Source: Isoetes taiwanensis
Taxonomy: Eukaryota; Streptophyta; Lycopodiopsida; Isoetales; Isoetaceae
Direction of reading: 5' to 3'
Assembly (NCBI GenBank): GCA_021234155.1
Contig: JAJEKV010000301.1
Location: 1-64,000, forward strand
Length of the DNA: 64,000 nt
Made by a program: the position numbers and the translations under genes
In this document: piece by piece, positions 27,480-53,929 of the stretch
Position numbering within the stretch: the first letter of the stretch is position 1
How the letters are laid out: each line of letters opens with the position of its first letter
The notes under the pieces: model-generated
Database searches by the model: none
Told to the model about the DNA's origin: nothing
The model's input: only the letters and a program-made list of their open reading frames with translations

Positions 27480-28090
27480 CACAATCATCGAAAGGGGAGG
27501 GTTGACCTCCCGTAACTCCAGGTCCGAGCAGATTAACGGAACAAGAAGAAGCTATGCAAAAAAAAGAAAACAAGAAGCTTAGAAGGCTTTGTTATTTGTC
27601 TTGCTTACCAGATCTGTTTGCTCGGAAGCACAACATCAAAGAGCCCAAAAGTGAAGAAGATGAAGACATGCAAGTTAACCATCAAGTCTGCACAAATCCG
27701 ATAGCTATGGAGCCTTTCTTGGTGCTCTACAAATGCCAGTAGCCCATATTCCGGCTCTGCGACTCATTTTTACTAGATTACAAGACGAGATTTATAGCTA
27801 AACATACATTTGCATCTGTCATTCATGTACCTGCTCAGAAAATCCTTCAAGCAACTAGTATGGGGCTGCGCAGCAATGCTTGGCGGCAGAAAGACTGTAA
27901 ATGGGCTTCTTTGGCATTAGAGGTTTGGTGGAGTCTATTAACGCCCTTGTAAGCCCTTCCCAAATTTGGATTTTAGTTGGTACCCGAACCTGCAGGTATG
28001 GGCAAAAAGCCCCCACGAACCTTAACCGAACCTCAGCCCTGGAGCATCCGAACCTGGTAAATGTCATTATTACTTGTTGTTTTACTCATT
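27480..28090. other. Stretch without a supported gene
   Basis: Short open frames only. A lysine/glutamate-rich frame at 27554-27742 is not recognisable. Nothing else is supported. Confidence 0.5.
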
Positions 28091-28164
28091 ACGCCTAAAT
28101 CCCTCCTCCCCCCACCTTCCCCCCAGAACTGGGCTACAAGGGAGTAGGCGGGGACACCTCAAGA

Positions 28165-29437
28165 ATGCCTCAATTGGGCGCCAAAGCTTTGGAGGACATT
28201 TCGAATTTAGTTTTGATGTCAATCCTCGCCCAAATCCGAAGGAATTCTCTAGTTTTTCTTCGTATTTTGGCGAAGAATTGCATCAATTTGGTCGCCGAAC
28301 TGTGGAGCTCGGAAAGCGATCACGCGACTCTGAATTCGATCTATGGCAGAGGTAACTGTTCTATTAATTTCGGGCAATGACAATGAGTAATTCTTTTTTG
28401 AATACCTAAACCGAAAGGCCAATTCCGGGTGGAGGTGCCCAAGAACTGCTTGCCCTACAAAAATCAATATAATCGGAAGGAGCAGTCGATGAGAATGCTC
28501 TCTTCGAAGCTTGGTGCAATGAATATTGATCTCGGAGCGTGGGGAACGGTATCCCATCGATCCGATCACCAGAAGACATCCTGAATTTCATTCTCCATCG
28601 GGGCTTATTCATTTTGCCTGTAAGGGTAATCAAGGTCTGCTTGGCTATTGCAATAATATTTCAAGTAATTCTGATGTGCATTTGAGAACAATGTACAATC
28701 AATTGTGTGGAGTGCATTGCAATATGGTAGCACACTGTAATTACCTCCAACAGTGTAACTATTTCTTAACCAACAGGTCTAAGAATACAGAAGAACTGCA
28801 AGCTTCCAATCAAAGGTTGCTTATGGAGGTGGAGTCACTTAAACAAGGATTGAAGAGATGCTCTGAGGACAATGACAAACTGGAGAGGAAGTTAAAAAGA
28901 CTAAAAATGACACCACTGGGATGAGGGAGAGGAAAAAAGAACTGAAGGCCCTAAATATACTTGCCCCTAGTGGTGGGGGCTCTAGAAGAAGAATCCACGC
29001 TATTAAAAATCTGGTGGATCCTACTATGGCTGAAAAGAAGAAGAGAAAACCTTGTAATATGGCTAGTTTGTTGAAAAAGCTTGTAACTAAAGATGATGTT
29101 ATAGATATGTTGAAGCTTCCTGGAGCTAACCATTTAAGAAAAGCTGTTGTTGAATAGGTGCTTACTGAATTGGGAAAGAGTCAAAGTGCTAATAGCATGC
29201 AAGAATTATGTGACAATGTGGGTATCAGTCGACAAGCTTACATTGCTCTCTTTAGATGTTTGCAGGATGGTATCAAGCAACAGGGTATTACAAAGACCAT
29301 ACTGCCAAGACTCAGTTATGTCAGAGCAAGCAGAACAAAGAGGAATGCAGAAGTACGCGAACATTTGGGAGAGATGTACCAGATCACCACATCCGTGCAC
29401 TTGGGATCACTAATCACTGGGAAAAGTAAGAAGAAGG
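28165..29437 (+). pseudogene. Transposase-like gene, 5' part, cut by the Copia insertion
   Basis: A possible first exon (28165-28352) ends at a good donor, CAGAG|GTAACTG. Downstream coding sequence holds a coiled coil with heptad-like leucines (EELQASNQRLLMEVESLKQ, about 28785-28880). A helical region follows (LLKKLVTKDDVIDML, about 29060-29115), then NVGISRQAYIALFRCLQDG (about 29215-29272), which looks like a small DNA-binding helical bundle. The coding sense resumes in the same style beyond the Copia element at 35019, so this is one gene split by the insertion. The gene has several other breaks. I do not recognise a named family from this half; see the 3' part for why it is called transposase-like. 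Confidence 0.5.
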
Positions 29438-30116: not shown

Positions 30117-30117
30117 G

Positions 30118-30130
30118 TGGTATCAGAGCC
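30118..30130 (+). promoter_or_regulatory. Primer-binding site (initiator Met tRNA)
   Basis: TGGTATCAGAGCC matches the complement of the 3' end of plant initiator methionine tRNA and lies one base after the 5' LTR. Confidence 0.9.
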
Positions 30131-30133
30131 ATG

Positions 30134-34339: not shown

Positions 34340-35018
34340 TGTTAGAAGTGTCATGTTATTTCTCTATAGTGCAGAACTTGAGTTACAGTGTTAATATACA
34401 GTTTAGGATAAACTATTGAAGCTGTAACACCTAGGTCAAGGCAAGTTGTTGGAGCAGTGAGCATCATCACATACTAGGTATGAATAATGTCTGCATGGGT
34501 TGAAGCTCAAACCTAGGTATGCACAAAACCTTTGTCGTGAAGTATGGTTAAAAGTTAAGTCTTAGCTTTTAACATTAAAATTATTGTTGAGAAATCGAAG
34601 TTCAATGGTTGGAGCCGATATGACCGAAATGCCTGTGGGATATCTATAGACTCAAGAAATATGGGATATTTCTTGAGATAAGTTTGACTCATATAGAAGT
34701 CCGATGGTTAACCCTTGCCGATCGGATTCTACAAGAAACTCAGATATATAGATGCAGATGAACAGTGTGAGGTGATCGTAGTTGTTTGGTGTGCCGGAAT
34801 TTTATGGATCCATGAAATAATGGATGCCCAAGTTCTTCAAGTGTTATACTGCTACAGTGTTTCAATGAATACCATTTGAACAGTAATCTCTATGATTGTT
34901 TTAATGGTCAAGAATACATAATAGACTTGTGCTTAAGAGTTAAGTGCTAGATATTTCTAAGGGTGTTTGCACAAGGTTGTATTGGATAGAACTTGCAAAT
35001 ATAATCTAACTTCTAACA
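34340..35018 (+). repeat. Copia 3' LTR
   Basis: It has the same length as the 5' LTR, with six substitutions and no indels by eye. It is followed by the duplicated target 'gaagg'. Confidence 0.95.
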
Positions 35019-36541
35019 GAAGGGTGGCTCCGGAAATGATCTATTTATTCTTAATGAGAAGAATAATTGTTGGATGGATCTCTCTAAAATGCTTCTTCTG
35101 TTAGTTCGCTTCTATGATATGAAAGTGGAAGAATGTGCAGGGAAACTCCAAATTGCTATAAAGTTGGATGAGATGGAACTGATCAAAGGTGAAAAGTATG
35201 AGAGGGTTTCTTTGACATTAATGAACAGGGCGTTGTCAAATTCTGATAATGAGGAAGGGAAGTTCTCTGTTCAATCAGAGGACCATATTTGGTGGATAGG
35301 GATATTTCAAGTACCGGAAGAAAATCATGGTGTTCTTCAGTGGGTCTTTCAGCAGACACCTATTCCTACTATTATTGCTGCTCATGGAGTCGGAGAGAAG
35401 CTTCAGGTTCCTGGCTACGGAGATTACGAGGTTGAATGGCATTTGGCTGCTGATCTAAAGACCATCAAGTGCATGTATAACATGAAACATGGTTCTCGTA
35501 AGACTACCCACGCATGTCCTTACTGTTTGTATGCTAGGGTAGATGATAAGGGAAAGGAATGAGTACTCTCGAATGTGACCGGGATCTTTGAACCAATGCG
35601 TGAGAAGGAGGACAAAACTTTGATCCCCCGTACTTGCAATTCCTGTGAAGAGAGTACATATTTGCACTCTCCATGCCTTTCTAAGAATAGTGGATAAGAT
35701 GGTGTACATGAGCATTCTTTTTGCTTGGAATAAGTCTCCACAATCAGCCAGAGAAAAGTGTATGAAAGATGTTGAGAACGTGCTTTCTGATCTTGGTCTT
35801 CATGGTGGTGACTATAAAATCTTGCAAGATCCTAAGAAGGGAGGCAAGGTTCCTTGTAAACCATCCATGGGTGGGGTGAAAGCGAAAAGATTTCTGCCTT
35901 GTACTAAATTACGTAAGAATGGATCCTTGCCAACTGGAAAGTGGGAGGGGTATAAGGACTTGCTGGTAGCAGAAGATGACCGTACTTCACGTGGGAGGGC
36001 AAAACTAAAGAAAATTAAAGCGTGGCAGAATTTGAGCAGTCTGGTAAATTTGATGGCAGAGAAGAAAATGGTGGGTGGAAAGTTAGATGAATTCAAAGTA
36101 GCAGTAACTGAATTCACGAAGTCGTTTATACAAGCATGGGGAGAATGCAATGTCACACATTACATTCATATACTTCACGCCCATGGCTTGTGGTTTGCCA
36201 AAGAGTACGGGAGCTTGGGAATATGGAATACGCAGGGAATGAAGAAGTCACATAAGCAAGCCAAGAATGCTTTTTTCAGGTTCACACAACATCGAGGTTC
36301 GTGTGGTAACTCATTGCAACAGATGTGCCAATGGTTCTATAGAAGGATTATCTGCAAGCTAGAGAAAAAAGATAAAGCTAAACAAGACACGACGTTGGCT
36401 AGAATATTGAGGAGAAAAGTTGAGCAGGAAAAAAAGAAACAGATATGGTGTAGCTCTAGTGCAGCAGACAAGTTAAGGCAGTGGCGATCCATAAGGATCA
36501 GACAGGGTAGAAGATATACTTCTGGGGTTTCAATTGTATGA
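35019..36541 (+). pseudogene. Transposase-like gene, 3' part
   Basis: Coding sequence resumes right after the Copia 3' LTR (KGGSGNDLF...) and runs to 36541. It includes WHLAADLKTIKCMYNMKHGS (an Asp in a strand-like context), then CPYCLYARVDD, VHICTLHAFLRIVDK, FIQAWGECNVTHYIHILHAHG and GSLGIWNTQGMKKSHKQAK. It ends in a basic lysine-rich tail. CxxC, several spaced Asp/Glu in strand-helix settings and conserved His are the style of RNase-H-fold transposases of the KDZ/Zisupton type. I have no alignment to prove this, so it could equally be a virus-like or host protein of unknown role. The reading is interrupted more than once. The stop lies 20 bp before a Helitron end and, ignoring that Helitron, about 77 bp before palindrome cluster I. 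Confidence 0.45.
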
Positions 36542-36560
36542 ACACATTCATATTAATGTA

Positions 36561-39500
36561 CTAGTAACGGTGCCCAGCGTTGCTGGGCATTTAAGTTGAG
36601 AACCTGTATGAACAGGACATAAGTTGAGAGCCAGTATGCATAGAAACCTTTTCAGCTCAAACTCCAGTGTCGTAAATTTACTATATTAGAAAGTGTCCAG
36701 CGTTATAAGATTGGACTTGAATTGCTATGTCATTGTTATGTTGTAGAATTTGGTTCCATCAACTTCTTGGCTATCGATAATTTTAAATGTCTTTACGTTG
36801 TGGAATCCATTGTCTATATTTGAATACATCCAATGGTGATTTTAAATGTCTTTATGTTGTGGAATCCATTGAATACATCCAATGCACCATGTTGGCAATT
36901 TAGATATTTGAATTAATTCAAGCCTCAATAGAAAACCAATGCACCACATGGCATTTATTGAAGTAATTCAAGTCTAAATAGAAAACCAAGTCTAAATGGC
37001 CCCTCACATTCGTATCAAACTACGTATTGTCAATAACACCTTGCAAATAATTTAGGTCCTTTCTTGATGTGTTATTGATGAAGAAAATCTAACACAAATT
37101 TTGTATACATTGTCAAGCAACATCTTGCAAATATAGACAGATCAGTTTACTAAGTTGGCAATACATAGTACATGTATATTCTTGTATAGAAATCTATGTA
37201 AGCAACTACAACATGCAGTTTAGACACATGCAAAGCGATTGACCATCCTTCCAACTCTGCAACATCATGCCAAAGGCATGCTTAATTATCCAAATGTCAT
37301 GATATTCATATATCCCTCGGTTAATAACCATGATAGTCATGTCCCCGTGACAAAGAAACTTATTGAGCAAAGACTTTTCATTTCATCGTGTCCAAGTTGA
37401 AAACCTGCAGAAGAATAGTTCACGTCCTGTAACAGGGTATTTCTGTAGTTTATGTCCTACAGAAAATGATTAAAGTCTAGAGGATCAAAAACAGAACTCA
37501 ATGTTTGCTTAACTTCTAGGTACACAGAATGCTTGATGCAAAAGTTGCATCCAAATAGAAAGGGAATCTTCTTCCCAAAAATCTCAAACATAGGTTGATT
37601 CTTTAACTTGCTTGGAGCTTTGTTTTCTTGTCAGCTTAGGCAGTTAATGGGGCGCTTCCAGCATGAAATATAGAAGAACCTACAAAAAGAAGCCTGCAAA
37701 GGGTAAATACTTGCATCTGTCTGCATATGCACAATAAATGCCGTCCAACATGATTTCTTGTGAACTGCTCTGCTTGCTAAAATAGAAGGCTACGAATTAT
37801 TTGCATGCTTGACTTGATACTTTTACTGAATCAAAAGTCTGCTCTGGGTGCAGATCTATAGTTGCAAGATGATAATGTGCTAAAGCAATCTTGTAGATTG
37901 CTAGAAAGGCTTGCGAGCATTGGATAAAGACTAAAACATTTCGCCAGGCAATGGGACCAAATTTGAAAAGCCATGGACTATTTGATCTGCATAAATATGA
38001 CAAACCACTTGAGTTGCAGTGGATCGATACTAAATACACGTTGCAAATGTCCAAAGGAGCATATACTGCACTGCATATGTATATTTACCAGATCTGCGTA
38101 TAGTACTTTTGCAGCAGACCATGAACCTTTGCTAAGCTTGCTAGCAACTACATCAAATTATCCTGCATTGAATATTAACAATTAGCAGATTGTATATGCT
38201 TCAGCAAAAGACATGAAAATACCAACAATGCTAAGAGTTTACAGCTAAAATACCACTGAGCATAGACATGCCCTTGATTGTATATTTGCAGGGAACAACC
38301 GTTTTTGATTAGCATTCCAAACTCTCAGTTTTCCTGCAAATAAATCGGGATAATATTATGTGCACAAACATGGCTTTCCGCAGCACTGAAACAAACTACA
38401 AACACAACTTCCTATCATCACACATAAAAATTGTGAAGTGCTAACCATGTTTGAATGGATATAGCATGTATAATAGAAATCATAATTGTGTCATTTAAAA
38501 AGACAGAAATTTGGCCTGCTTGAAAGTGCTGCTATCAAAACAATGCTCAAGTGCAACTACTTTTGTTGCATGTTACCTGTATTTAATCGTACTATTCCCT
38601 TGATTAAGCCATAATAGGCTGCTTGTGGAATTTTAAACTCCCCACCTCTCTTGCGAAAAGGTTTCCCATCTTCATGCAGCCGCAACAAATACTTGAACTA
38701 TTTACATCAAATGACTACAACAATTTCCTTGCAAGACAGAACTGCTCTTGCAGCACATGATACTGAGATCAAATGGATATACGGACAAAGCTGTTGTGAG
38801 AAAAGGGACCCTTTTATGTAGACAAAGCATCTTTTAGCGGTGAGTTTTTAGAAAATTTAACTACCAGACAGGAACAGATACTTGAATCACTACAGAATGT
38901 AAAATAGAGGCTACGGCATAAAATAACATCCAAACTTTGGCCATTCAAATAACTGCATAGAAGTTCTTCATACAATTCTGGTATCTCTTACTCATGATTA
39001 AGAATGATGTTGTTGACGGAGAAAAGATGAGTTTACCACTGTGCAATACCTGGAAATATTGTTGTTACTGCACATAATCTCTGCAAAAGAAAAACACAGC
39101 TTGGTTCGCCATCTTGCCAAGCATGGGCAAATCCAAAATGTAGAAACTATCTCCACACTGTCTGTATAGAAACAAAAGGAGAGAAGATGAGCTTACCACT
39201 GTGAAATTTTGTTGTTGTTTCTGCAAGTTAGCTTGCATCGTCAAAAGCTGCAAGCTAACTTGTTACCATAGCTGCTGGAATCTACAATCCTCCGACCAGA
39301 GGCCTTCACATTTAGTGGTATAGCTAGGATTTAGCCTCTGCTGTTCTGAAGCTTCCACATGCCATAGCCATAGCCGCCTAGCCTGTCATAGCCGTCACCG
39401 AGAGCTGAAGAAGATATATGAAATCGTGGTCACTGTAGAGATGCAGAAAAGATCGCATGCACCTATGAAGAACTCACCTCCAGCATGGCTGTGAAGTGGC

Positions 39501-39811
39501 ATTTTTCGCCATCATCCTTGGGCAATGGCTTCAAATCTGAGTAGGCACTGATCGGATGGTAACAACACAAATATGGCGCCGTCCTTATGCTTCCAAAGAA
39601 GCTCATCTGCCAATGTATTAGAACATAGATTCTATAAAAAACACAGGCCGTTTAGCTCTACCGGAGGGAAAGAGTCCCTTAATCCGTTACTGTATGGCAA
39701 CCCTATCAAAATTCACGCATCAAGGACCATCCAAAATTTTAAGTGAAATCTGCGCCGTTGAAAGTTTTAGGGTTTGATTGACGACATACACCAAAACCTT
39801 ATAATATTAGA
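36561..39811 (-). mobile_element. Non-autonomous Helitron, 3.25 kb
   Basis: On the minus strand the element starts TCTAATATTATAAGG at 39811 and ends ...CCGTTACTAG at 36561. An 8-bp-stem hairpin (TGCCCAGC-loop-GCTGGGCA, 36571-36589) lies six bases before CTAG. The flanking host bases are A on the 5' side and T on the 3' side, the AT target expected of Helitrons. These are the canonical marks: 5' TC, 3' hairpin plus CTRR, insertion between A and T, and no target duplication. The interior has no Rep/helicase frame and no long coding region, so it would depend on an autonomous relative. It may contain captured host fragments that I cannot identify. Confidence 0.8.
36571..36589 (-). terminator. 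Helitron 3'-terminal hairpin
   Basis: Perfect 8-bp stem with a 3-base loop, six bases from the CTAG terminus. In Helitrons this hairpin is a transposition termination signal, not a transcription terminator. Confidence 0.8.
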
Positions 39812-39861
39812 TAACTATTGACCATGATGTGCAACTATAATGTTTCAAATATGTTAGGTTG

Positions 39862-40000
39862 GCAGCGTGGGCACGGTGCGAACTTAGTTGGTATTCAATT
39901 GATGAATGACAAGTATTCGCACCGTGGCCACGGTGCGAATGAAGTTGGGAATTAGTTATAGATTAAGCGCTATTTCGCACCGTGGCCGCGGTCGCGAAAG
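39862..40000. repeat. Palindrome cluster I (three units)
   Basis: Centres lie near 39870, 39927 and 39985 (57 and 58 bp apart). The middle unit, 39915-39940, is a perfect 26-bp palindrome around GCACCGTGGCCACGGTGC; the outer two are degenerate. The cluster lies 3' of the transposase-like gene (ignoring the Helitron) and upstream of the histone-like gene. Confidence 0.9.
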
Positions 40001-40172
40001 CATTTGGTTTCGTGGCTATCTTTTTTGCCGTTTTCGCCGCGGTAATCTGCGGTACTCTTTATATAATTATCTTTGTTATCGATGTTGTCTGCTTTTGATA
40101 TTTGTTCTAAGTCATTACATTGCATATTTATCAATCTTGTCCACTCATTTGTTGCATTGCAGTTCAGAGACA

Positions 40173-40546
40173 ATGGCACAAAATAGCGGTAATGCCGGAT
40201 CTAACAATCCCAGCAACCAAAGAACGAAGAAGAGAAGGCCATCTGGGCACACACATCATGGGGAAGACAAATGAGGGCGGCGCCACTAACTATGTCGTGC
40301 TTTAACAACCGCAACGAGCTCCGTCTTAGAGCGGAAAACATCCATCAAGCAAGTCCGGGATTTGTAGTTGAGAATGTTGCCAATGAGGCGAAGGAGATTT
40401 TTAGAGACATACCTTTCGAGCCAAAGGCGTGTTTACCGTTCTCTTCTTCGCCATTTAGTCCGGAGAAGGAACCTTTGTGCGAGGCACATGCTGTCATGGA
40501 GTTCCCGTGGTCGATGATTGCATCGCCGTTAACGCCGATGTGGTAG
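40173..40546 (+). CDS. Probable 5' exon region of the histone-like gene
   Basis: An ATG at 40173 opens a short basic peptide (MAQNSGNAG...TKKRRPSGHTHHG). The next open segment, 40271-40546, contains RLRAENIHQASPGFVVENV and AKEIFRDIPFEP. The two do not share a frame with each other or with the large downstream ORF, so either introns or breaks separate them. No domain is recognised. They are placed here because they lie between cluster I and the histone-like ORF on the same strand with little gap. Confidence 0.35.
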
Positions 40547-40562
40547 TTGCACCAGACACGCG

Positions 40563-41513
40563 TTGCCTGTTCCTTCGATGGGAGCTGACAACTTGCTTGA
40601 GGCACTCCATTCCTTCATCGTGTGGCCCAGGTTGATGGCTTCTTTGTCGCCAACAATAGGAACATTCTCTGTACTGGCTAATGAGATAGATTACATCATC
40701 GGACTTCCTCGTAGAGTGCCGAAAGTTGGATTGGTGGAGATAAACCAGGGGCCAGACTTGCTTGGAGACGACAATGAGAATGCTAAGCCCCATGAGGATG
40801 ACCATCAGGATGTGCATGTCCAGAATGTTCCTGTTGCTGTTCAGAATGAGGATGTGCCTGTCCAGAACGTTCCTTTTGCTGTTCAGAATGTATTTCAACC
40901 CCTGAATGTTATGTACCAGGGTGTCCCTATCCAGGTCCCTGTGACAGCTCAAATCGCAGAAAATATCATTCTACAAGAGGCAGCTACAGTACCTGTGACG
41001 GTTGTACCTGAAATCGTAGTACCAGATACAGTAGTGGTTCCTGTGGTTGAGCAGCCTTTAGAGGTCGCGGAATCCAGTAGACATAAGAGGAAGACTAAGC
41101 CTAAGCAGCTGCAGAAGAAACAGGTTCTCTGTAAAGGCCCTCCTAAGCTGAATAAGAAGGGCCAGCCGTTTAAGCCAAAGTATAGATGGATTCGGGAAAT
41201 CCGGCACTTCCAGAACCATGTGGAGTGGGTGCTTCCGAAGCTCACAATGGCTAGAATATGTAAGGAGGTGGTTCAGGAGAGATACATTAAGATGAAGAGG
41301 GATAGTGGAAGGTACCAGAAAGCTGGTAGAAGTTTTCCAATGCCAGAAGAGGTGACTCGATTCACTGCAGATGCCCTTGATGCTCTGCACGAGGCCGCTG
41401 AGAATCACATGGTCAGGTTCTTCGAAGACTGTGTGAAATGTGCTGTGCATTCCAAGAGAGTGACAATAATGAGGCAGGATATTGCCTTGACAAATTACTT
41501 CCGAGGCATGTAA
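40563..41513 (+). CDS. Histone H3/CENH3-like fold protein with a long N-terminal extension
   Basis: A 316-codon uninterrupted frame. Residues 83-165 are a V/P/Q-rich repeat region (NVPVAVQN and NVPFAVQN repeats). Residues 172-208 are strongly basic, like a histone tail. Residues 209-316 match the H3 fold in order: REIRHFQ (211-217, alpha-N, as in plant CENH3), PKLTMARICKEVVQ (alpha-1), then EEVTRFTADALDALHEAAE (alpha-2). FEDCVKCAVHSKRVTIM (287-303) corresponds to the FED..LCAIHAKRVTIM signature of H3, and alpha-3 ends at the C-terminus. Loop 1 is about 20 residues longer than in canonical H3. The R-F/W-T-A-E/D-A-L pattern and EAAE favour CENH3 over H3.1. It probably binds DNA or forms variant nucleosomes. 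The true start may lie upstream. Confidence 0.75.
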   Translation: MPVPSMGADNLLEALHSFIVWPRLMASLSPTIGTFSVLANEIDYIIGLPRRVPKVGLVEINQGPDLLGDDNENAKPHEDDHQDVHVQNVPVAVQNEDVPVQNVPFAVQNVFQPLNVMYQGVPIQVPVTAQIAENIILQEAATVPVTVVPEIVVPDTVVVPVVEQPLEVAESSRHKRKTKPKQLQKKQVLCKGPPKLNKKGQPFKPKYRWIREIRHFQNHVEWVLPKLTMARICKEVVQERYIKMKRDSGRYQKAGRSFPMPEEVTRFTADALDALHEAAENHMVRFFEDCVKCAVHSKRVTIMRQDIALTNYFRGM

Positions 41514-41603
41514 AGTGTTTTATATTAATGAAACGATTTTTGTTGTATATTTTGTTTGCTTGCTAAGTATTTTGATTGTATCTATTCTCTATGTATATTT
41601 ACA

Positions 41604-41744
41604 ATGCACCGTTGCCACGGTGCGAAATGGGTGTAAATTACTTTGTGAGGGCAGGTATTTTCGCACCGTGGCCATGGTGCGAAATTCCTGTAAGTTACTG
41701 TGTGAGGGCAGGCAATTTCGCACCGTGGCCACGGTGCGAAATTG
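41604..41744. repeat. Palindrome cluster II (three units)
   Basis: Centres lie near 41614, 41671 and 41728, exactly 57 bp apart. The last unit, 41713-41744, is a perfect 32-bp palindrome. Here the two spacers are similar to each other (both contain 'gtgagggcagg'), unlike in other clusters. It lies about 90 bp after the histone-like ORF and 3' of gene A1, so between convergent genes. Confidence 0.95.
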
Positions 41745-41749
41745 AATCA

Positions 41750-42108
41750 TTCCATAGAAGGTGAATCACAAGATCAAAGGGAACATATTAACATATTAGA
41801 GAATATATTAACATATTAGAGAACATTTAGAGAACATATTAACACGGTATCATATGAATTATGTATGATAGATAGCAAGTAACGGCAGTATGTCCAAGTA
41901 ACCTTCCCCTAGGTTTCTAACCCCTTCCCCTTCCCCTTCCCCTTCCCCTACGAGGGGTAACCCACGCAGCTGGGTTAGGAAACCAGAGCTCACGCGTATC
42001 CCAGCCTGATTCTTCCCACCATATGGGATACCTAGTCATTAGAAAAAGTAATTCCACATGATGATACTCACGGAAGAAGAGCGGACCCAACTCCACAAAA
42101 CCATTGTA
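41750..42108. repeat. Short repeats and a G-quadruplex-capable (CCCCTT)n tract
   Basis: 'agagaacat(a)tta' words repeat at 41790-41845. At 41921-41948 five CCCC runs are separated by TT, so the minus strand has five GGGG runs two bases apart, a strong quadruplex former. It lies in the 3' flank of gene A1. Confidence 0.8.
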
Positions 42109-42507
42109 CTAGTTGTAGTACACCCTAATAAGGCCATACATCTGTCCCTTACAAATTTCATGAATGAACTCTGACATGTATTGATCCAGAGAGTGTGCTA
42201 AATAACCAACACAAAGAAGAGGCCTCAACTGCTGTAGCATCTCGTCCAGATAAGGAGGGGGTTCAAGAATTCCCCTCATTGCAAGCCTTCTATAACATTC
42301 AGATGGATTGATTTCCATCGGTGGTTCATGACCACAATCAAATCGCTCCAGAATGAAGTTGATCAACTCCATTGCAAGCTCCTTGGTGGGACTGTGGTGC
42401 AACCTCCACTCCAAGAAATGGTCAAATAGCTCATCAGTTTCAGGCCGCACAGAATGTCTGGGGCATGCTTGCAGGCCTTCTGGAGTGACCCAGGGAATCA
42501 TTTGCAA
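42109..42507 (-). CDS. Unknown small protein A1 (132 aa), paralogue of A2
   Basis: Intact frame. Motifs shared with A2 are a DEFF/DELFDHF block with an aromatic W-R-HxxPTxELA stretch (residues 27-45), ELINFI(L/I)(E/D)R (47-56), E-I-N near 67, GxLEPP near 80, and a (Y/F)xAxSLDQY segment (106-112). It is probably all-helical. I do not recognise the family. Upstream on its own strand lies a purine-rich degenerate repeat ('gcaaggagcatgaagatcaagta', 42505-42725), mirrored upstream of A2, so the duplication included the 5' flank. Palindrome cluster II lies beyond its 3' end and cluster III beyond its 5' flank. Confidence 0.6.
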   Translation of the reverse strand: MQMIPWVTPEGLQACPRHSVRPETDELFDHFLEWRLHHSPTKELAMELINFILERFDCGHEPPMEINPSECYRRLAMRGILEPPPYLDEMLQQLRPLLCVGYLAHSLDQYMSEFIHEICKGQMYGLIRVYYN

Positions 42508-42730
42508 AGAGCACGAAGATCAAGTAGCAAAGAACAAGGAGCATGAAGATCAAGTAGCAAGGAGCATCAAGATCAAGTAGCAAGAAGCAAGGATCAAGGA
42601 CGATCAAGGAGCAAGAAGATAAAAAAACAAGGAAGATCATGAAGCAAGGAAGCAAGGAACAAGATCAAGTAGCAAGATCAAGAGCAAGGAACAAGATGAA
42701 GTAGCGAAGAACAAGCATCAAGATCAAGTA
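42500..42730. repeat. Purine-rich degenerate repeat upstream of A1
   Basis: Repeated 'gcaaggagca(t/g)(g)aagatcaagta' units of about 20-30 bp. Open frames across it are repeat translations. Confidence 0.75.
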
Positions 42731-42935
42731 GCAAGGAACAAGGAAGACCAAAGACCAAGAAGTGTGAAAACATGGAACAAAGGTGAGAAGTGAAAGCAAG
42801 CTGTCAGAATTTATAGCTACGAATCCAATAATGTTGAAGTATAATACTAATACTGTTGAAGTATAATACCAAGAATGATGCAATAATGCTGAAGTATTAT
42901 ACCAGTCGGTGGTGGTAACAAAACGTGATCTACGT

Positions 42936-43020
42936 ATTTCGCACCGTAGCCACGGTGCGAAATAGGCCCTTCAATAATTTGGAATTGAAGCGATTTCGCA
43001 CCGTGGCTACGGTGTCGAAT
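42936..43020. repeat. Palindrome cluster III (two units)
   Basis: Centres lie near 42949 and 43006, 57 bp apart, each with one or two mismatches from the perfect palindrome. It lies about 200 bp after the 3' end of A2 and upstream of A1. Confidence 0.9.
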
Positions 43021-43225
43021 ATGACCACAAATAGAACAATCACATGAAAAAATACAAGGAAAATGGTAGAAGATATCATTCAATTACACTAAAAGTGTAA
43101 GATTGCCAAGATAATACATGATAAGATAAGGATGTTACTTAATTACACGAAAATCACTTGCTTATATACTTAATTTCTATGAAAATCTTTATACCAGTTT
43201 ATACACATATTCCAATGGAGTATCT

Positions 43226-43792
43226 TTACCTGTGATATGTATGTATTATGTGCTGTGTGCTATGTAGCCATAGGTCATGTGTATCCCAAGGAATTGTATC
43301 CCACTCGGGGAATTTAGACAGTAACCACAGGATGTTGAAGTCAAGGGAACGGAATAGGAGCTTACCAATATCCACAAAAGATTTGTAATGGAAGTCGTAA
43401 AGTTCAATGAGGATATAAATCCTATTCTTCTCACTAGTAGGAATGACCAGAGGCACATACTGATCCAGAGAGTAGGCCATGAAACCATGGAAAAGCATGT
43501 CCTTCAACTGTTCTATCCTATCTTCTAAATCTGAGGGGGGTTCAAGAAGTCCCAAAGCACTTAGAGTGAACCTTGCTTGATTCGAATTGATCTCCTCCAG
43601 TGGAGGGAGATGACGAGTATAGCGATCGATAATGAAGTTGATCAGCTACCTTGCAAGCTCTGTGGTTGGACCGTGACGCCATCGATGCTCCCAAAAGTTG
43701 CTAAAAAATTCATCAAAAGTGCACGTATTTCTGCCGCATGCTTGCAGGTATTCCGGATCAGCCCAGCGAGGATGTTCTTGCAAAGTTACCAT
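43226..43792 (-). pseudogene. Unknown protein A2, broken paralogue of A1
   Basis: Translation from an ATG at 43792 aligns with A1 along its length: F(D/E)EFF..FWEHRW.HGPTTELA, LINFIIDRY, EEIN, LGLLEPPSDL and FMAYSLDQY. It then extends further than A1, with a C-terminus ending HTYHR. The copy is not intact. Its ATG faces B1, giving the only divergent gene pair in the island, and no palindromes lie between them. The family is unknown. Confidence 0.5.
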
Positions 43793-43794
43793 TT

Positions 43795-43965
43795 GCAAGA
43801 AATTAGTGGAGCAGACAAGAAACAACTAGTGGAGCAGACATGGAGGCAAGGAGCATGCAAGAAAGGAGCAGACAGGGAGGCAAGGAGCCACAAGAGGCGG
43901 ACAGGGAGGCAAGGAGCAAATAAGAAGCAGACAAGAGGGGGAAAGAGGCAAAGACAATGAAGGCA
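43795..43965. repeat. Purine-rich degenerate repeat upstream of A2
   Basis: 'agcagacagggaggcaagg' units repeat several times, the counterpart of the repeat upstream of A1. Confidence 0.75.
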
Positions 43966-44039
43966 TAGATGCCTATTTAAAGAGAAATCAGGTATATATG
44001 CTATATACGTACATTATATTTATGCTTTGGATTGCAGCC

Positions 44040-44482
44040 ATGGATCATTTCTCACGCATTCACCAAGATCATTGTAGCTCATGTAGCAGAGTACCATACA
44101 AGTATGTATATGATCCAATAATTTCTATGTATATACCATCAATAATTTTGGTGGGTATATACCATCAATAATTTTGGTGGGTATAAATATACATCAAATT
44201 GCCGAGTGCAGCAACATTGGCCTCCGTCTAGCCATGTGGTCTCATTCTGGTCCTGAACGTGATTCCATTACCTGCAAGATGAATCACAAAAACTTCAAGC
44301 AGTGTCGCGAGCGAGAAATACCCATGGAAGACTGGACGACCACTGCCGCTCTCAATCCTCGCTATTATCCTGATCCCTTCGATGTTATCATCCATCTAAT
44401 ATGGAATAGAGAGCATCAAATGTACATGATAGAAAAGATCACTGGGGTGCCTGGTGACAATGACTCAGAAGAGTCCCCCTAA
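44040..44482 (+). CDS. Unknown small protein B1, paralogue of B2
   Basis: The conserved core is at 44174-44482. It has DSITC.M....F.QC..REIP...W followed by FDVIIHLIW and IEKITGVPGDND near the end, all matched in B2. An ATG at 44040 opens a frame (MDHFSRIHQDHC) that ends near 44180. A 27-bp tandem duplication ('ataccatcaataattttgg', 44135-44185) lies between that ATG and the core and may have disturbed the start. The pair of Cys in SITC and QC could bind metal, but no known zinc finger fits. The function is unknown. Confidence 0.5.
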
Positions 44483-44545
44483 ATCAATACTTGTCATCTG
44501 GATCATATTGTCAATACTTATTTGAAGAGTTCATGATCGTGTATT

Positions 44546-44960
44546 TTGTACATTATGCTCGTATATATAACCAATAATGCTGCTACAGTGCATGGCAATA
44601 ATTTTGTTCGATATAAGTACAGCTCCATTCAATGCAGAAGGCATCCATTTGCTATGTCTCGGCCTGGTCATTCTTATTACAGGGGGTCTACCTTGCCTCC
44701 TCATCCCGAAGCTATAGACTCCATTACTTGCACTATGAAATATAATGATCTTTATAGATGTTCTCAGAGGGGTATCCCCCTTGATCCCTGGCTGGAAGGA
44801 GTAACAGAGGGTCGAAATCATTCTTCCAAGGGGGTTTATCGTGTTGTTATCCACCTTCGGTTCGTTCCAGAGCCGCCACGCCTATGAGATTAATCGCATC
44901 ACTCAACTACCCGCTCATGATGATCCCGATGCGCGAATGATCTTCGTGATTTATGTATGC
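44546..44960 (+). CDS. Unknown small protein B2, paralogue of B1
   Basis: The core begins near 44656 (MSRPGHSYYRG) and has DSITCTMKYNDLYRCSQRGIPLDPW and YRVVIHLRF, aligning with B1. The next matching block (YEIN.ITQLPAHDDPD, like YMIEKITGVPGDNDS in B1) is in a different frame near 44890-44940, so this copy is disturbed near its 3' end. It directly follows B1 on the same strand. Palindrome cluster IV starts about 190 bp downstream. Confidence 0.5.
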
Positions 44961-45146
44961 TATGCCTCTTATATGAGTTCTAAATTCTGTTACTAGAATA
45001 TTTCAGACATTCGCTAGTTATAAGTATGTAACCATAAGAGATAGATACATATGATCCATCTATTTACCGTACATTTTCAATTTGGAAAGCTCTTGGCCAT
45101 TTTCCTTACATGTAGATTCTAAATTCAGATAAGCATTCTCTTCACA

Positions 45147-45341
45147 GTGTGTGTAGTCACGGTGCGAAATTGCACACTCCAAAAACGTTAGAACTGCTAT
45201 TTTCGCACCGTGGCGACGGTGTGAATTAGACCTTCCCACGGAATGTGGAATAGTCATTTTCGCACTGTGGCCATGTTGCGAATATTGGTTAGTTGTAAGC
45301 ACAGACAACACGGTTTTCGCACCGTGGCCACGGTGCAAGTA
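45147..45341. repeat. Palindrome cluster IV (four units)
   Basis: Centres lie near 45156, 45213, 45270 and 45327, all three intervals exactly 57 bp. The first unit keeps only its right half well. The three spacers have no evident similarity to each other. It lies between the convergent 3' ends of B2 and C. Confidence 0.95.
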
Positions 45342-45439
45342 AAATAGAAGCGTAAAACAAATTAAAATGAAGCTGAAGTTTATGTTCGATATAACAAGAA
45401 TAGAGATTTCAAACAAGTCTTTGCATTAATTGACAATGG

Positions 45440-46946
45440 TTACAACTTCATTTTCTTAGAAACATGTAAGTCATCGGACACTTCGACTTCTTCCAATTCG
45501 GACTCCTGCAGACCAGCATCCAACAGGTACATAAGGCGAGGAATCTGGGGCTCCCTCTCTTCCCAAGTCAGTCGAACTGTAGACAAGGCCAATGCAGCTC
45601 TACTGGCAGCCATAGAATACATACTAAAGCCACCAAAAATATGTGTGGCGATATCTCTCCTAACAGCCACTCGATCAGAATTGGCAGATAATGGGATGTG
45701 ATTACCAATCAACGAGAGGGCCTTGAGTTTCAAGACCTCTTCTGGTCCATATGGGCTGTACTTAGAATGGAACACAACGATCTCTCCCTTATAAAGGTAG
45801 CCCATATAGTGGGGGATACTTGCATCTCTGCCAAGGGTAACTCTGTCATGTCTGGCGCAAAAATCGTCCACAAAAATCTCTTGCGCAATAAACAATCGTT
45901 CTTAGGCACTTAACAAAATAAGCAAACTTATGGTAGCTTACCTCCACTTCATCAGATGCAATAACCCCTTTGGTAGAAATGTTGATGGACGACCTTGAAG
46001 AGCTTGATTCGCTCTTTGATACTTGTTTTGCACTATCTTTTTTAGCTTCTGATGTACTCGCCTCGAACTTTACTTCTGAGACTTCCTTCAAGCCCATTTC
46101 TGCCATCTCCAGAACTCTATCAAAAGCATTCTCAGGAGCTATTGAAGTTCCATCATAGGTTAAGAGATCGTGCAGGTCCCTAGGCACTTCCGGCTCGAAG
46201 TCAATGAAGTCGTCTAGACCAACAACGAAAGCATAGATTTGTCCAAGGACCTCATCTTCCCTCAAACCAAGTAATGGAAGATATATCGTGGAGAAGAAGA
46301 TAGTCCTTCCCTCCTATGTTAACCGGCAAGGCTTCGTGACACCCCATCTATCAAGATTCTCTTCATGCTCGCTTCACGTCTTCATCCTCCGCCCTCGCCG
46401 AGCTTTTCCACCAATTCCGCTCTTTCTCTGCATCAAATACCTCCTCTACAGGTGATTGAGGTTCTGCAATAGCCTTCACCTATGGTTCTTCCCTATATGT
46501 TGGTGGAACCGTATATATCATGTAAGTAGCAAACATGATGTCAACTGGATATAAATTATCCTTCCATCCTTCTCACATAAGTCGGCTGGCAGTCTCTTGA
46601 ACGACCTTCGAACCTTATCTTGGTCACCTTTGGGAAAAAGCTTCAGAAAGGACTTTAGACTCAATACAATCTTCCCAGTCGAGGGAGAAGGACGCGCTTC
46701 AGTTTCTGCCATGGCCATGAAACTCTGAATGTACTGACCATACACGTCAATGTGTTTGTTAGCCTCAGAGATTATATATACCGTTAGGAAAAAGTTATTG
46801 TAGACTACAGTGGCGTCTACCGGGTTTTCAGGCTGTTGAGCGAACTCATCTGGGTGTGACCCCGATACACGCTTTCCTTCTTGACGATCCGGGTCATACC
46901 ATACCTGGAACTGTTCCCAAGCTTTCTCTGACCTGCCGTTTGACAT
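45440..46946 (-). CDS. Unknown gene C, spliced
   Basis: Three open segments lie on the minus strand. The first starts at an ATG at 46946 (MSNGRSEKAWEQFQVWYDP, about 140 aa). The second is 46265-45950, with a serine/lysine-rich linker (KSESSSSRSS). The last is about 45885-45440, ending KKMKL with an acidic stretch just before it. A good donor (GTAAGCTACC) follows the second segment and an acceptor (GCGCAAG) precedes the third, giving an intron of about 64 bp. The joint between the first and second is less clear (46270-46520). No domain is recognised. The last segment has GYLYKGEIVVFHSKYSP and a helical AASRAALALSTVRL. The spliced structure argues that the island is, or became, a nuclear eukaryotic locus. 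Confidence 0.5.
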
Positions 46947-47060
46947 TGCGGAATTGTAGCGCCTCCTTTAGTGCAATAAAAAACCTGATCGCCTAAAAGT
47001 AAGTGCCTGCGAGCTCACGACGCGAAACTAAAATGTCTTAAGTGTCCTGATGAGAAATAT

Positions 47061-47268
47061 GTCGCACCGTGGCCACGGTGCGAAACAAATATAAACGCCA
47101 AAGACAACAATACGGTATTCGCGACCGTGGCCCACGGTCGCGATATTTTATTAAAAGAAGGCCAAATTTAGTTAAGCGCAAAACATACTACACCCGCCCA
47201 CGGTCTTGAAACTACACAACATGACTACACGAACTCCACATGTTTCGCACGGTGGCCACGGTGTTGAC
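47061..47268. repeat. Palindrome cluster V (four units, two degenerate)
   Basis: Centres lie near 47072, 47131, 47197 and 47255. The spacing is less exact (58-66 bp) than in other clusters. The second unit is a compensated variant, GACCGTGG.CCACGGTC, changed on both arms so pairing is kept. It lies between the 5' end of C and the 3' end of D. Confidence 0.85.
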
Positions 47269-47342
47269 TTTGCAAAAGGATATAAGTTATTGGCAAACAA
47301 TACTGGGATTTGAACCCAGTAACACCATTATTATTTATTTGT

Positions 47343-47849
47343 TTAACTGTTTTCACTTAAAGAAAGTACAACAGGAGGTATACAGAGCTTTGTTGTATAC
47401 AACTCTTCCCTACGTTTTCCTACCTTGACACCATCCACCAAAAAATGGAAGACGTTTAAGTCACATTTTGATTCCAAAATAATTCTTACATCAAATAAAG
47501 ACCATGCTTCTTCGACTTTTAAGGTTTTAAACAATTGACCACCTTTGAAGATAGCAATGTCAATGACCGCAGAATGGGTACCATCAACATCGTCTTGTTC
47601 CATTGGAACCCACGTCCATCTGCTCCCTTCTTTTACTTCCCTCCATCTTCTGTATTTGAAGGTAATGTAAACTGTTTGCTTTCGAATACAATACCTGATT
47701 CGAACGCTTTCTTTCTTTATCCTGCACTGTACCTTCTCAACTCCTTCATGCAGACGGGATGACCATTCATCACATAAAATGTCATCCAGAAACAACTGAC
47801 AATCACTTACAGTAAACATTTTTGAAGTCTTCTTGACTACTTCCCACAC
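47343..47849 (-). CDS. Unknown gene D, last exon
   Basis: An open segment preceded by a convincing acceptor ('ttttatccag' on the minus strand), so this is probably a 3' exon of about 168 codons. It begins WEVVKKTSKMF and ends LSLSENS. The end segment has alternating hydrophobics (LFKTLKVEEAWSLFDVRIIL, then NVFHFLVDGVKVG), compatible with a ubiquitin-like beta-grasp fold, but this is a guess from pattern only. Upstream exons were not found; insertions fill 48.1-49.7 kb. Confidence 0.4.
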   Translation of the reverse strand: MWEVVKKTSKMFTVSDCQLFLDDILCDEWSSRLHEGVEKVQCRIKKESVRIRYCIRKQTVYITFKYRRWREVKEGSRWTWVPMEQDDVDGTHSAVIDIAIFKGGQLFKTLKVEEAWSLFDVRIILESKCDLNVFHFLVDGVKVGKRREELYTTKLCIPPVVLSLSENS

Positions 47850-48181
47850 TGGATAAAAATAATTCCTTCAATTAAATCCTATAATTGTTACTCCACAAAA
47901 TTTACAATATTTATAAATATGTAGGTAGAGAACAATACAAAGATGAGGTATTTTTAACATCCATGGGAAGCAAATCACATTTCAACAGATAGATAGATGC
48001 CATGGAATAGAACTATACATAGTGCGACTCTGGGTGGTCTTGAATCTAATACATCGCTCTTCTGGAACAAGTGTGTTAAAGAAGGATGACTAATTTTGTT
48101 TTTACATTCCTTTTTCGCACTTTGTAATTGCAGTTAACAAATTAGTAGTACGGGGCATAGCCCCCAAGTTCTGCTTGGGCT
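47850..48181. other. Probable intron or spacer upstream of gene D exon
   Basis: AT-rich with no open frame. It precedes the acceptor of gene D on the minus strand. Confidence 0.4.
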
Positions 48182-50465: not shown

Positions 50466-53400
50466 AAGAATAGAATAGAATAGAATAGAATAGAATATGA
50501 TTTTATCGTCCGCGGAGACCAACTGGCCTATGGGACCCAAGTACAAAGAGAGAGCAGCAGGCGTATTACTACCAGGATTAAAAACCCCACCAGAAGGGTT
50601 TTCGAGGGAAAACCTTAGTAGCAATAAGGATCTTTGACATACCGCAGTTATATACATAATCACAAGTGCGGTGAGGTTAATGCCGGACGACAGGGGGCAT
50701 AATTGAATCACGTATCCATTACCTCCCCGGAGGTATGATCCCAACAAGCCTCTGAGGCCGTGCTCGGTAGCTCTCATGCGGCCCGATGGGGCACAACTAA
50801 CCGAAAGCATACCGAGCCCGGATATGCTCGCATTTTACGGACAGCTCGGGGGCGACTTTCATCCTTAATGGCTTCGTTGGCGGCATTGATGGACTCTGTC
50901 CTCACGCTGCCCTCGAATCCATCTCCCTGTCTCAATGCGGAGGTGGTGTGCACCTATCGCGAATGGAAGCAATCACCCCTGCGGCTTTTTTCATGGGTAG
51001 ATGGTTGCACGTAGTGGTGTGGGCCCCTCGTGAGCATGGGATTAACTCGCCGTCGATAATTTGCCATCTTGACATGTGACAGGGCCTCTGCATCCCAAAG
51101 CTTGGCCATGAAGCAAGCATCTAAGTACCGCTTCAAGGCAAGCGTTCCTTCGGTGTATGCACCGGTCCACATCCGTGGTGCTGCACATTCCATAGCGAGA
51201 ACCACCGGGCTTGCTTTGTCTTTCCAGCGAGGCTTTGAGTAAGCTCTGGGGCCCATCGCCACCGCCAAAGCAAGGTTGGGCAGCGGGCTTCATCCATAGC
51301 CACCACCTTCTCGGAAGTAAATAATGTGACGTTCAGTAGCAGCCCTCTCAGAATGGAAGGAAGCCCGTAATACGGAGCAAGATCGATATGGGACCGTGGA
51401 TTTCACTCCCGATTGCCGGGCCAATAAGGCTATCAGACTGCTCTAGATCGTTCCAAGTGGTGAGGGATATCACCGCCCCCCACACTTACGCCCCATAGAG
51501 GAGGACCGGTTCAACCAAGGCCTCGAACAAATGTGCCGGTGACCCCATGCATCTGACCGCCTTGTGATGTTGTTTTGCATTGCATCTGAGGGCTTTCCGA
51601 CTGCAGTGACCCGAATAACGATGGATGCATCCCAAAGATGTGGTAGTAGAAAACTCAATGCCCAAATACTTATAAGACTGAGCCACCTCCACTACCTGCC
51701 CCTGGTAAGTGAATGAGGGAAGGCGTGGGTGCCGGGATGATGGGACCAACAGCACCCTTGTCTTGGCCAAGTTAACTCTCATGTCAGTGAATTGGCAGAA
51801 AGTGTCCAAAGCATCCAGGTGGCGTTGCATGTCCTCTGGGGTATATGCGAGCAGGTCAACATCATCAGCATATATGAGTTGCCGGATTATGTGGTGCATC
51901 AACCCGGCGCCTCCCGTGCTTCGCCTAGCCATTCTTCTAGCTGGTCAATGTACAAGCGAAGAGCGTCGGGGATAGAGGGCAGCCCCGGGCGCACCCCAAT
52001 GCTACTAACAACAGCTCCCGACAAGCGATTGTGAGGCGGCCGAGCAAGCCTCAGATAGATGCAGTATATAGCATTACGCAAGTCGATGGGGGTCCCTAAG
52101 CGTCTCAATCTATCCCACAACTTATCCCGGCCTTCGTGTCAAAAGCCTTTGCGAAATCCACAAAGCAGCAAAGATGATTCTCAAGGCCGATTCGGCTATC
52201 CTCTATGAGTGTTCGCAGAGTGAAGATATGGTCAATAGTAGAATGCCGGGCGGAAGCTTTACTGGGAGAAACCGCGACTTCTCCATCCCTCGCCCAAAGT
52301 GTCAATCGGGCCAAGAATCCCGCAAGCAACTTGGCAAAACGCAGGTAACGACCATAATGGTGCGATGGTTGGTCAACGTGGGGGTCCCCTTTGTATATGG
52401 GCACAACTCTTGGTAGTCCAGTGGGGAAGCCTTCTTGCAATGCCCCGTTGAAGAGGCTTTGAGAACCGACACCATTGGGGCCCGCCCACTTGAGAAGCTC
52501 ACCGCGATACCATCCAAATCTGGGTGCCTTCCCGGATTAGCGGCGGCTGCAGGCCCATTATGACATCCCCTTCAAGAATGACCGCCAGCTGGGCCACGTG
52601 CGGGAGGTACCGGGCCCCGCTTCCCATTGGGTCATACAAACCGCCGCAAGTATCTCACCCATTGTTCGGGGTAATATTTCTCGCGGGTCGCGGGGCTTAC
52701 TCAAGACCTTTCTCCGTAAGGCCCTAGGGTGGCGGCCTAGAAGACCAAACATCACATTCGGTGCTCGCAAGGTACCGGGCTTTCTTGGTCTTGAGGAAGG
52801 AGCGGTATTGTGGGACGGCCTCGGGCGGCTAATGGTGGGGTCCAAAGACTTGGCGGAGCCATCGTTTCACTCCGACATTCGCCATCGAACCCGGTGATTG
52901 CGAGGGAAGGTGATTGCAGCCCCCGTGGATCGCCGAGAGCGCCTCTCCCAAAGCATCATCCCCTACCCTCGGAAGGAGCCGGTTCACCGGGCCATCCGGC
53001 CGTTGAAGTGTGGGGAGTTGCAGCACTCCGGCAGCTCATGCTCAAGCATCCGCGATAGACCGCGGCATGATCATAGTCCAGACGCAAACCGCGTGGTACA
53101 TGGGGTGTTGGGGCAATGGGTGCTTTCGGTTGGCACCGCCAATCTATCCGCAAGAACAGGGGGCTGATGGTCGGAGTCTACTTCCTCGCCCCGGCCACCT
53201 GTCCGCACACCGGGTGCAGTGATCAAGTGTAGGCATTGCTCGTCGCTAGCACGTAATCCACCACACCGGTGCCAGCCCCCTCGGTTCTCCCCGTCTACAA
53301 GTGAAGCGGGCTGGAGGGCTACCACCGTGACCCATTGCAAATGACCAGGTCAAAGATATCGCCTTCAAAGCGGCTTTACTGGCTTGGGCCATACCGGTGT

Positions 53401-53760: not shown

Positions 53761-53929
53761 GTTTTGGAAGCTTTAAATATACTAGTTTCCTTTGACATCC
53801 TACATCCACCCAAAGGACTTCGTAACAATGAATTGCAACTTATACAAGTCATGGCATATATATATAATTATAGACAAGTGTTTGTAGTATAAAAGACTAC
53901 ATGAGGCCGACCTTGCAATGTGGATGGTG

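What the first reader, a model, noticed from the sequence alone, without database searches (positions are those of the whole stretch)
39862..47268. Palindromes spaced at exactly 57 bp with unlike spacers, in a nuclear genome
Sixteen copies of a palindrome with core GCACCGTGGCCACGGTGC fall in five clusters. Centre-to-centre intervals I measured are 57, 58 | 57, 57 | 57 | 57, 57, 57 | about 58, 66, 58. Most spacers (about 31 bp) show no similarity, yet length is kept. A simple tandem repeat would lose length as fast as sequence. So either spacing is under constraint (about 5.4 helical turns, suiting paired protein dimers or cruciforms) or an active process lays them down. The architecture superficially recalls CRISPR, but there is no sign of that machinery.
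Basis: partly seen in the sequence, partly recalled or inferred. Interest (0 to 1): 0.92.

Follow-up and report, generated by a model that had tools for sequence, protein, structure and literature searches.

The report
Palindrome arrays bounding transposon gene cassettes
In what appears to be a quillwort genome, a many-gene jumping element that carries its own histone-like gene marks the ends of its genes with arrays of one palindrome repeated every 57 bases, and related elements seem to have swapped genes at those arrays.

Summary
In detail: 16 copies of TTTCGCACCGTGGCCACGGTGCGAAA lie in five clusters, mostly at a 57-bp pitch. They belong to a ~12-kb repeated DNA transposon (window left end 27915) in a 1,658,258,908-bp assembly whose size matches Isoetes taiwanensis. 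The transposase family has a RAG1/Transib-like predicted fold. The element also encodes a divergent histone-H3-like protein and several unknown proteins.

Genome-wide there are 377 exact cores, 0 in the reversed control. The 57-bp peak survives collapsing transposed copies: 18 of 26 spacer types. Spacer sequences differ but keep a weak dyad at their exact centre. Palindrome and pitch recur in families whose H3-like proteins are only 40-45% identical.

Arrays adjoin 22 of 25 resolved gene 3' ends and 0 of 4 divergent X2|Y junctions. Between families, 5 of 6 outer ends of homology blocks lie within 44 bp of an array, and the H3-like and X1 genes are present, absent or moved between arrays.

Best reading: sequence-specific gene-boundary elements, probably a protein-bound lattice acting as terminator or insulator, that also serve as recombination joints for gene cassettes. 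Binding protein and function are inferred, not shown.

The parts
27915..28034 (+). left end of the transposon (CATTAGAG...)
   Evidence: 93% match to the left end of the C3 copy; ends compared
28005..29437 (+). 5' part of the element, start of the transposase gene, before the copia-like insertion
   Evidence: nucleotide match to other copies ends at 29437 and resumes at 35018
35017..36541 (+). transposase coding region, in two frames (35017-35562 and 35624-36541)
   Evidence: ORFs; relatives; fold of relative P0024
39858..39998 (.). array A, three palindromes, after the transposase gene (about 66 bp after its end once the 36560-39811 insert is discounted)
40174..41513 (+). H3-like gene; histone fold about 41103-41510; frame broken upstream of 40533 in this copy
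   Evidence: Pfam Histone 3.4e-18; PDB H3 6e-14; 143 matches in the genome
41602..41741 (.). array B, three palindromes, between the 3' ends of the H3-like gene and X1
41917..42519 (-). X1, unknown protein, frame broken near 42109; paralogue of X2
   Evidence: 42% identity to X2 over 84 residues, E 2e-17
42937..43019 (.). array C, two palindromes, after the 3' end of X2
43226..43645 (-). X2, unknown protein
44231..44482 (+). Y1, unknown protein, start codon chosen by eye
44657..44996 (+). Y2, paralogue of Y1, frame broken near 44887
45144..45340 (.). array D, four palindromes, between the 3' ends of Y2 and Z
45440..46967 (-). Z, unknown protein, in several frames in this copy
47060..47268 (.). 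array E, four palindromes (one degenerate, about 47184), after the 3' end of W
47343..47867 (-). W, unknown protein; nucleotide match to other copies stops at 47837, so the right end of the element is missing here

Best explanation
The clusters are gene-boundary arrays of a multigene DNA transposon. Shown: the element is a repeated ~12-kb unit with short inverted ends; its arrays share one palindrome and a 57-bp pitch across divergent families; they adjoin gene 3' ends and are absent from the divergent X2|Y junction; most homology-block ends between families lie at arrays. Inferred: a protein, encoded by the element or the host, binds each 26-bp dyad as a dimer, and the fixed pitch lets neighbouring dimers touch. 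The resulting lattice stops transcription or insulates neighbouring, often convergent, genes, so that read-through and double-stranded RNA do not expose the element to silencing. Because every array carries the same sites, recombination or template switching between arrays moves whole genes (cassettes) between elements.
For: Discrete element with shared ends. Pitch: 83 of 106 intervals of 35-100 bp are 57; 18 of 26 spacer types. In the L019 array six spacers carry 36 substitutions and no length change, where 5-14 indels are expected from the rate between copies. The majority palindrome is the same 26-mer in the main family, C222 and L019, although H3-like proteins are 40-45% identical. Arrays adjoin 22 of 25 resolved gene 3' ends and 0 of 4 X2|Y junctions. 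Five of six outer ends of homology blocks lie within 44 bp of an array.
Against: No binding protein is identified and no function tested. Between recent copies palindromes mutate more, not less, than the rest (0.081 against 0.056) and spacer indels are only slightly rarer per substitution (0.296 against 0.386), which fits dead copies but gives no support. Arrays A, C and E also lie upstream of H3, X1 and Z, so a promoter role is not excluded. One block end (L019:8750) is not at an array, and L047 has a deletion inside its block that is not at an array. The spacer dyad is not predicted by a simple protein lattice.
Confidence: 0.5

Rival explanations
1. The arrays act as hairpins. In transcripts or single-stranded DNA two neighbouring palindromes pair with each other and the spacer arms extend the stem, giving an 83-nt hairpin in 3' regions that is processed, or that stabilises or ends the RNA.
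For: Arrays A-D fold far better than shuffles as RNA (z -7.5, -8.8, -11.2, -4.7; E not folded). Spacers pair about their exact centre (0.385 against 0.250, 0 of 2000) with different letters (covariation 0.318 against 0.230, 3 of 500). Weak similarity to microRNA precursors, below the curators' cut-off.
Against: Any palindrome folds well, so the z-scores follow from the palindromes. Two of the pair-counting measures for the spacer are not significant (168 and 53 of 500), palindrome pairs do not covary (342 of 500), and spacers alone fold only slightly better than shuffles (mean z -0.74). Structure alone does not explain why the letters of the palindrome are kept.
Confidence: 0.18
2. The arrays are target motifs of an anti-silencing protein of the element, as in VANDAL transposons, which removes DNA methylation from the element.
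For: VANC targets are tandem repeats of a short motif in noncoding regions of multigene plant transposons and vary between copies (PMC5735166 and PMC10398659, passages). Array length varies between families here (2-7 palindromes or more).
Against: No Pfam match to a known anti-silencing protein in the 10 window ORFs scanned. Arrays avoid the divergent X2|Y junction, where promoters are expected. The pitch is fixed; spacing of VANC motifs was not found discussed in the passages seen.
Confidence: 0.14
3. Plain tandem duplication plus a mutational process. The 57-bp unit was duplicated, recombination keeps palindromes alike, and quasi-palindrome correction makes spacers symmetric; there is no function.
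For: Arrays differ in copy number, and duplicated units are seen (84% alike in B; three near-identical spacers in L019).
Against: Spacers far apart in sequence keep their length. Placement at gene 3' ends is not explained.
Confidence: 0.09
4. The arrays are true recombination sites, comparable to integron attC sites, at which cassettes are excised and inserted by a dedicated recombinase.
For: One array per gene 3' end or convergent pair; H3-like and X1 genes present, absent or relocated between arrays; most block ends at arrays.
Against: No recombinase other than the transposase was recognised by Pfam in the ORFs scanned. Independent block ends are only about three. Shared sequence alone could make arrays recombination joints.
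Confidence: 0.06
5. The region is an endogenous large DNA virus and the arrays are origins or enhancers like baculovirus hrs.
For: Baculovirus hrs are dispersed ~30-bp imperfect palindromes that act as origins (PMC6669502, passages).
Against: Discrete ~12-kb element with inverted ends and a transposase-like protein. No viral structure matches the transposase model at E<=0.001. The exact 26-mer is absent from the viral contigs scanned.
Confidence: 0.03

Closest known systems
VANDAL transposons and VANC target motifs (Arabidopsis; PMC5735166, PMC10398659, passages)
   Same: multigene plant DNA transposon with tandem arrays of a short motif in noncoding regions; arrays differ between related copies
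   Different: here a 26-bp palindrome at a fixed 57-bp pitch, at gene 3' ends, with one sequence in all families looked at; no VANC-like protein recognised
Transib / RAG1-like transposons (PMC4411706, PMC9435367, passages)
   Same: predicted transposase fold with RAG1 and HzTransib as best PDB matches; D, D, CxxC, HxxxxH and E in the same order; Transib-like proteins have been reported from plants
   Different: ends CATTAGAG, no target-site duplication seen, no sequence match to RAG1 or Transib chains in the PDB, and a set of extra genes including an H3-like one
Baculovirus homologous regions (PMC6669502, passages)
   Same: dispersed clusters of a ~30-bp palindrome
   Different: in a transposon of a nuclear genome; at gene 3' ends; role as origin or enhancer not tested
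Integron attC sites (PMC8946536, passages; one site per cassette is recalled)
   Same: palindromic sites marking cassette ends; genes gained, lost and moved between them
   Different: arrays of identical palindromes instead of single sites of varying sequence; no integrase seen; eukaryotic
rDNA terminator arrays bound by TTF-I or Reb1 (recalled, no call)
   Same: array of one protein site after a transcription unit
   Different: RNA polymerase I; not palindromes at a fixed pitch, as far as recalled

Membership tests
Transib/RAG1-like superfamily | RAG1-like RNase H transposase fold | tested here: met
Transib/RAG1-like superfamily | D-D-E residues with CxxC and HxxxxH zinc ligands (layout in RAG1 recalled) | tested here: inconclusive
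   D464, C484, C487, H536, H541 of P0024 are conserved in 90% or more of rows; D367 and E759 are conserved by eye in rows that reach them; the model is weak around E759
Transib/RAG1-like superfamily | 5-bp target-site duplication | tested here: not met
   11 of 13 copies with both ends show no flush repeat of 2 bp or more, one shows 3 bp, one lies in a simple repeat (C1082 and C268 re-read by hand)
Transib/RAG1-like superfamily | RSS-like CAC-type ends (motif recalled) | tested here: not met
   ends are CATTAGAG / CTCTAATG
Transib/RAG1-like superfamily | sequence similarity to known members | tested here: inconclusive
   no PDB chain at E<=10 with the 37-row alignment; no Pfam match above cut-off; other Transib collections were not at hand
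VANDAL/VANC | motif arrays in noncoding regions of a multigene transposon | tested here: met
VANDAL/VANC | Mutator-type transposase and a VANC protein | tested here: inconclusive
   no Pfam match above cut-off other than Histone in the 10 window ORFs scanned; transposase model closest to RAG1; broken frames and remote relatives limit the test
VANDAL/VANC | removal of DNA methylation | not testable with these tools
   needs bisulfite data
Baculovirus hr | dispersed arrays of a ~30-bp palindrome | tested here: met
Baculovirus hr | lies in a large DNA virus genome | tested here: not met
   discrete ~12-kb element with inverted ends
Integron attC | palindromic site at the 3' end of each cassette | tested here: met
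   22 of 25 resolved gene 3' ends; the three exceptions are all Y1, followed by Y2
Integron attC | integron integrase (tyrosine recombinase) | tested here: inconclusive
   none recognised by Pfam in the ORFs scanned; not every frame of every family was scanned
Histone H3 | H3-type histone fold by sequence | tested here: met
   Pfam Histone 3.4e-18; PDB H3 chains from 6e-14; first loop longer than in H3 by alignment
Histone H3 | assembles into nucleosomes | not testable with these tools
   no experiment

The most novel reading that the evidence does not exclude
A eukaryotic transposon family runs an integron-like modular gene system: palindrome arrays at cassette ends are the actual exchange sites, and the element's own H3-like histone is loaded on or near these fixed-pitch arrays to build a private chromatin domain that escapes silencing.
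Probability: 0.1. Interest if true: 0.93.

Novelty: new variant of a known kind. Interest (0 to 1): 0.7.

Why it matters
It brings together a multigene plant transposon with a RAG1/Transib-like predicted transposase fold, a transposon-borne H3-like histone, and fixed-pitch palindrome arrays at gene ends. If the arrays are boundary and exchange sites, they give a testable model of how selfish elements insulate their genes and trade them. Collapsing copies to spacer types also shows how to test a spacing constraint in repeats without counting transposed copies as independent evidence.

Tried and rejected
CRISPR: rejected, because spacers are shared between element copies by transposition and no Pfam match in the 10 ORFs scanned points that way. 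Endogenous virus: see rivals. Rfam over the whole window at gathering scores: nothing; with a lax cut-off over 39700-47500 only weak microRNA-precursor and tmRNA matches below gathering scores. Exact 26-mer in viral contigs: none. Transposase profile in viral contigs: 13 pattern hits, none confirmed. H3-like query in the protein database: none at E<=0.001. Single-sequence fold of the L021 transposase ORF: useless (pLDDT 34.6). PDB sequence search with the transposase alignment: nothing at E<=10. Protection of palindromes between recent copies: looked for, not found. CpG columns of palindromes do not decay faster than others (0.163 against 0.162). Odd intervals of 67-70 and 78 bp (57 plus about one or two helical turns): mostly one orthologous position, so not claimed. 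Pooled dN/dS among recent copies is near or above 1 for X2, Y2 and the H3 N-terminal part (1.01, 1.45, 0.96). Dyad test: in the smaller set the offset next to the centre was also raised (11 of 2000); it was not (466 of 2000). Literature: ten searches. Those aimed at a histone-carrying transposon listed three and two papers; by title and abstract start none reports one, and I opened none of them. Only open-licence PubMed Central papers are covered.

Odds of the best reading were left as they were; two rivals moved by 0.01 so that the odds sum to one.
Full report
Observation. The palindromes are real and placed as described. Sixteen copies in five clusters have intervals 57,58 | 57,57 | 57 | 57,57,57 | 58,~66,~59. 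Thirteen are close matches; three are degraded or carry indels, and the one near 47184 was placed by eye. Two 57-bp units of the second cluster are 84% alike.

Where it lies. The window is contig C904 of a 1,658,258,908-bp assembly in 1110 contigs. The published Isoetes taiwanensis assembly is 1658.30 Mb in 204 scaffolds and 909 contigs, from nanopore and Illumina reads (PMC8566536, passages). I take it to be this lycophyte on these numbers alone. The 18-bp core occurs 377 times, and the pattern read backwards 0 times.

A mobile element. Stretches around other clusters align with the window over kilobases, mostly at 85-97%, and homology starts and stops at the same points. The C3 copy runs from L005:1924 to L006:3960, 12,037 bp. 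Its ends are short inverted repeats, CATTAGAG...CTCTAATG. First-look candidates were 181 for the left end and 208 for the right end; 40 of each were scored and all 40 matched. In the window the element starts at 27915. It is broken by a copia-like retrotransposon (29438-35017, named by eye from ORFs) and by another insert (36560-39811), and the match to other copies is lost after 47837. Of 13 copies with both ends, 11 show no target-site duplication, one has a 3-bp match and one lies in a simple repeat (the right junctions of C1082 and C268 were mis-placed by the script and re-read by hand).

Genes. In order: transposase (+), array A, H3-like (+), array B, X1 (-), array C, X2 (-), Y1 and Y2 (+), array D, Z (-), array E, W (-). 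The H3-like protein matches Pfam Histone at 3.4e-18 and H3 chains from 6e-14. It has a long N-terminal part and a longer first loop than H3. It has 143 matches in the genome (123 of 5990 first-look candidates were scored), several in open frames of 380-567 residues without stops. Pooled dN/dS between the window and 7-10 recent copies is below 1 for transposase (0.47), X1 (0.49), Y1 (0.59), Z (0.34-0.54), W (0.70) and the H3 fold (0.74), but not for X2 (1.01), Y2 (1.45) or the H3 N-terminal part (0.96). Against the divergent C222 copy, W gives 0.1 and transposase 0.2. Between the H3-like genes of two families pN/pS is 0.58-0.62 with synonymous sites near saturation.

Spacing. In the fetched stretches longer than 3.1 kb and the window, 83 of 106 intervals of 35-100 bp are exactly 57. 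Genome-wide, 414 pairs lie 42-72 bp apart; of the 50 listed, 47 are at 57 and one each at 56, 58 and 61. These are largely transposed copies: the 47 spacers fall into 10 types. Collapsing all fetched intervals gives 26 types, 18 with 57 as their commonest spacing. Types are nearly unlike (mean identity 0.345 against 0.305 shuffled). In the seven-palindrome array of L019, six spacers carry 36 substitutions and no length change, where the indel rate between copies (0.145-0.39 per substitution, the upper values probably raised by assembly errors) predicts 5-14. So length was kept while sequence changed. Between recent copies no such protection is seen (palindromes 0.081 mismatches per base against 0.056 elsewhere), which fits dead copies decaying freely.

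Spacer dyad. Spacers pair with themselves about their exact centre: 0.385 against 0.250 (sd 0.026), 0 of 2000 shuffles for 18 types. Pairing persists with different letters by two measures (percentage paired 5 of 500, covariation score 3 of 500) but not by two others (168 and 53 of 500), and relatedness of the spacers can inflate such scores. Spacers alone fold only slightly better than shuffles (mean z -0.74). Two palindromes and their spacer form a long hairpin in RNA or single-stranded DNA. This is a real rival to a protein lattice.

Cassettes. H3 lies between A and B in the window, but between D and Z in L047, L048 and L019. X1 is present in the window and L048 and not found in L047 apart from its paralogue X2. 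A block of L048 (3684-7304) matches the window at 84-86%, while matches outside it are at 67-73%. Of six outer ends of such blocks in L019, L047 and L048, five lie within 44 bp of an array, where 14-18% of each locus lies that close; the sixth, L019:8750, does not and may be a truncation. The end at array D is shared by all three, so independent ends are about three. Breaks between recent copies of the main family, inserts and deletions for the most part, were not tested this way.

Mechanism. Letters kept in palindromes but not in spacers point to sequence-specific recognition; fixed pitch points to contact between neighbours; placement at 3' ends and absence from the divergent junction point to termination or insulation rather than activation. 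Exchange at arrays may be a by-product of shared sequence. All functional steps are inferred.

Noticed in passing
L006:4747-5337: Open frame beginning MARTKQTARK, like the N-terminal tail of histone H3, followed by unrelated sequence; it lies just outside the right end of the C3 element.
   Followed up: no
window 47297-47332: On the minus strand between array E and W, a stretch that looks like the T-arm and 3' end of a tRNA (GGGTTCAAATCCC); ARAGORN finds no tRNA in the window.
   Followed up: no
window 1-8000: GC-rich region (0.57-0.59) whose ORFs repeat the same phrases, apparently a tandem array with a long unit; named by eye.
   Followed up: no
window 16695-18489, 30059-33913 and 51486-53867: ORFs that look like gypsy, copia and LINE-type retrotransposon proteins, named by eye; the copia-like one interrupts the element.
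   Followed up: partly
C222:130000-156000 (L010-L012): Rearranged copy: a ~5-kb direct duplication (97%) and a ~2-kb inverted duplication (96%) carrying long palindrome arrays.
   Followed up: partly
arrays D and E in several copies: Off-pitch intervals of 67, 68, 70 and 78 bp exceed 57 by about one or two helical turns, but most are one orthologous position.
   Followed up: partly
window 41921-41949: Short CCCCTT repeat at the 3' end of X1.
   Followed up: no
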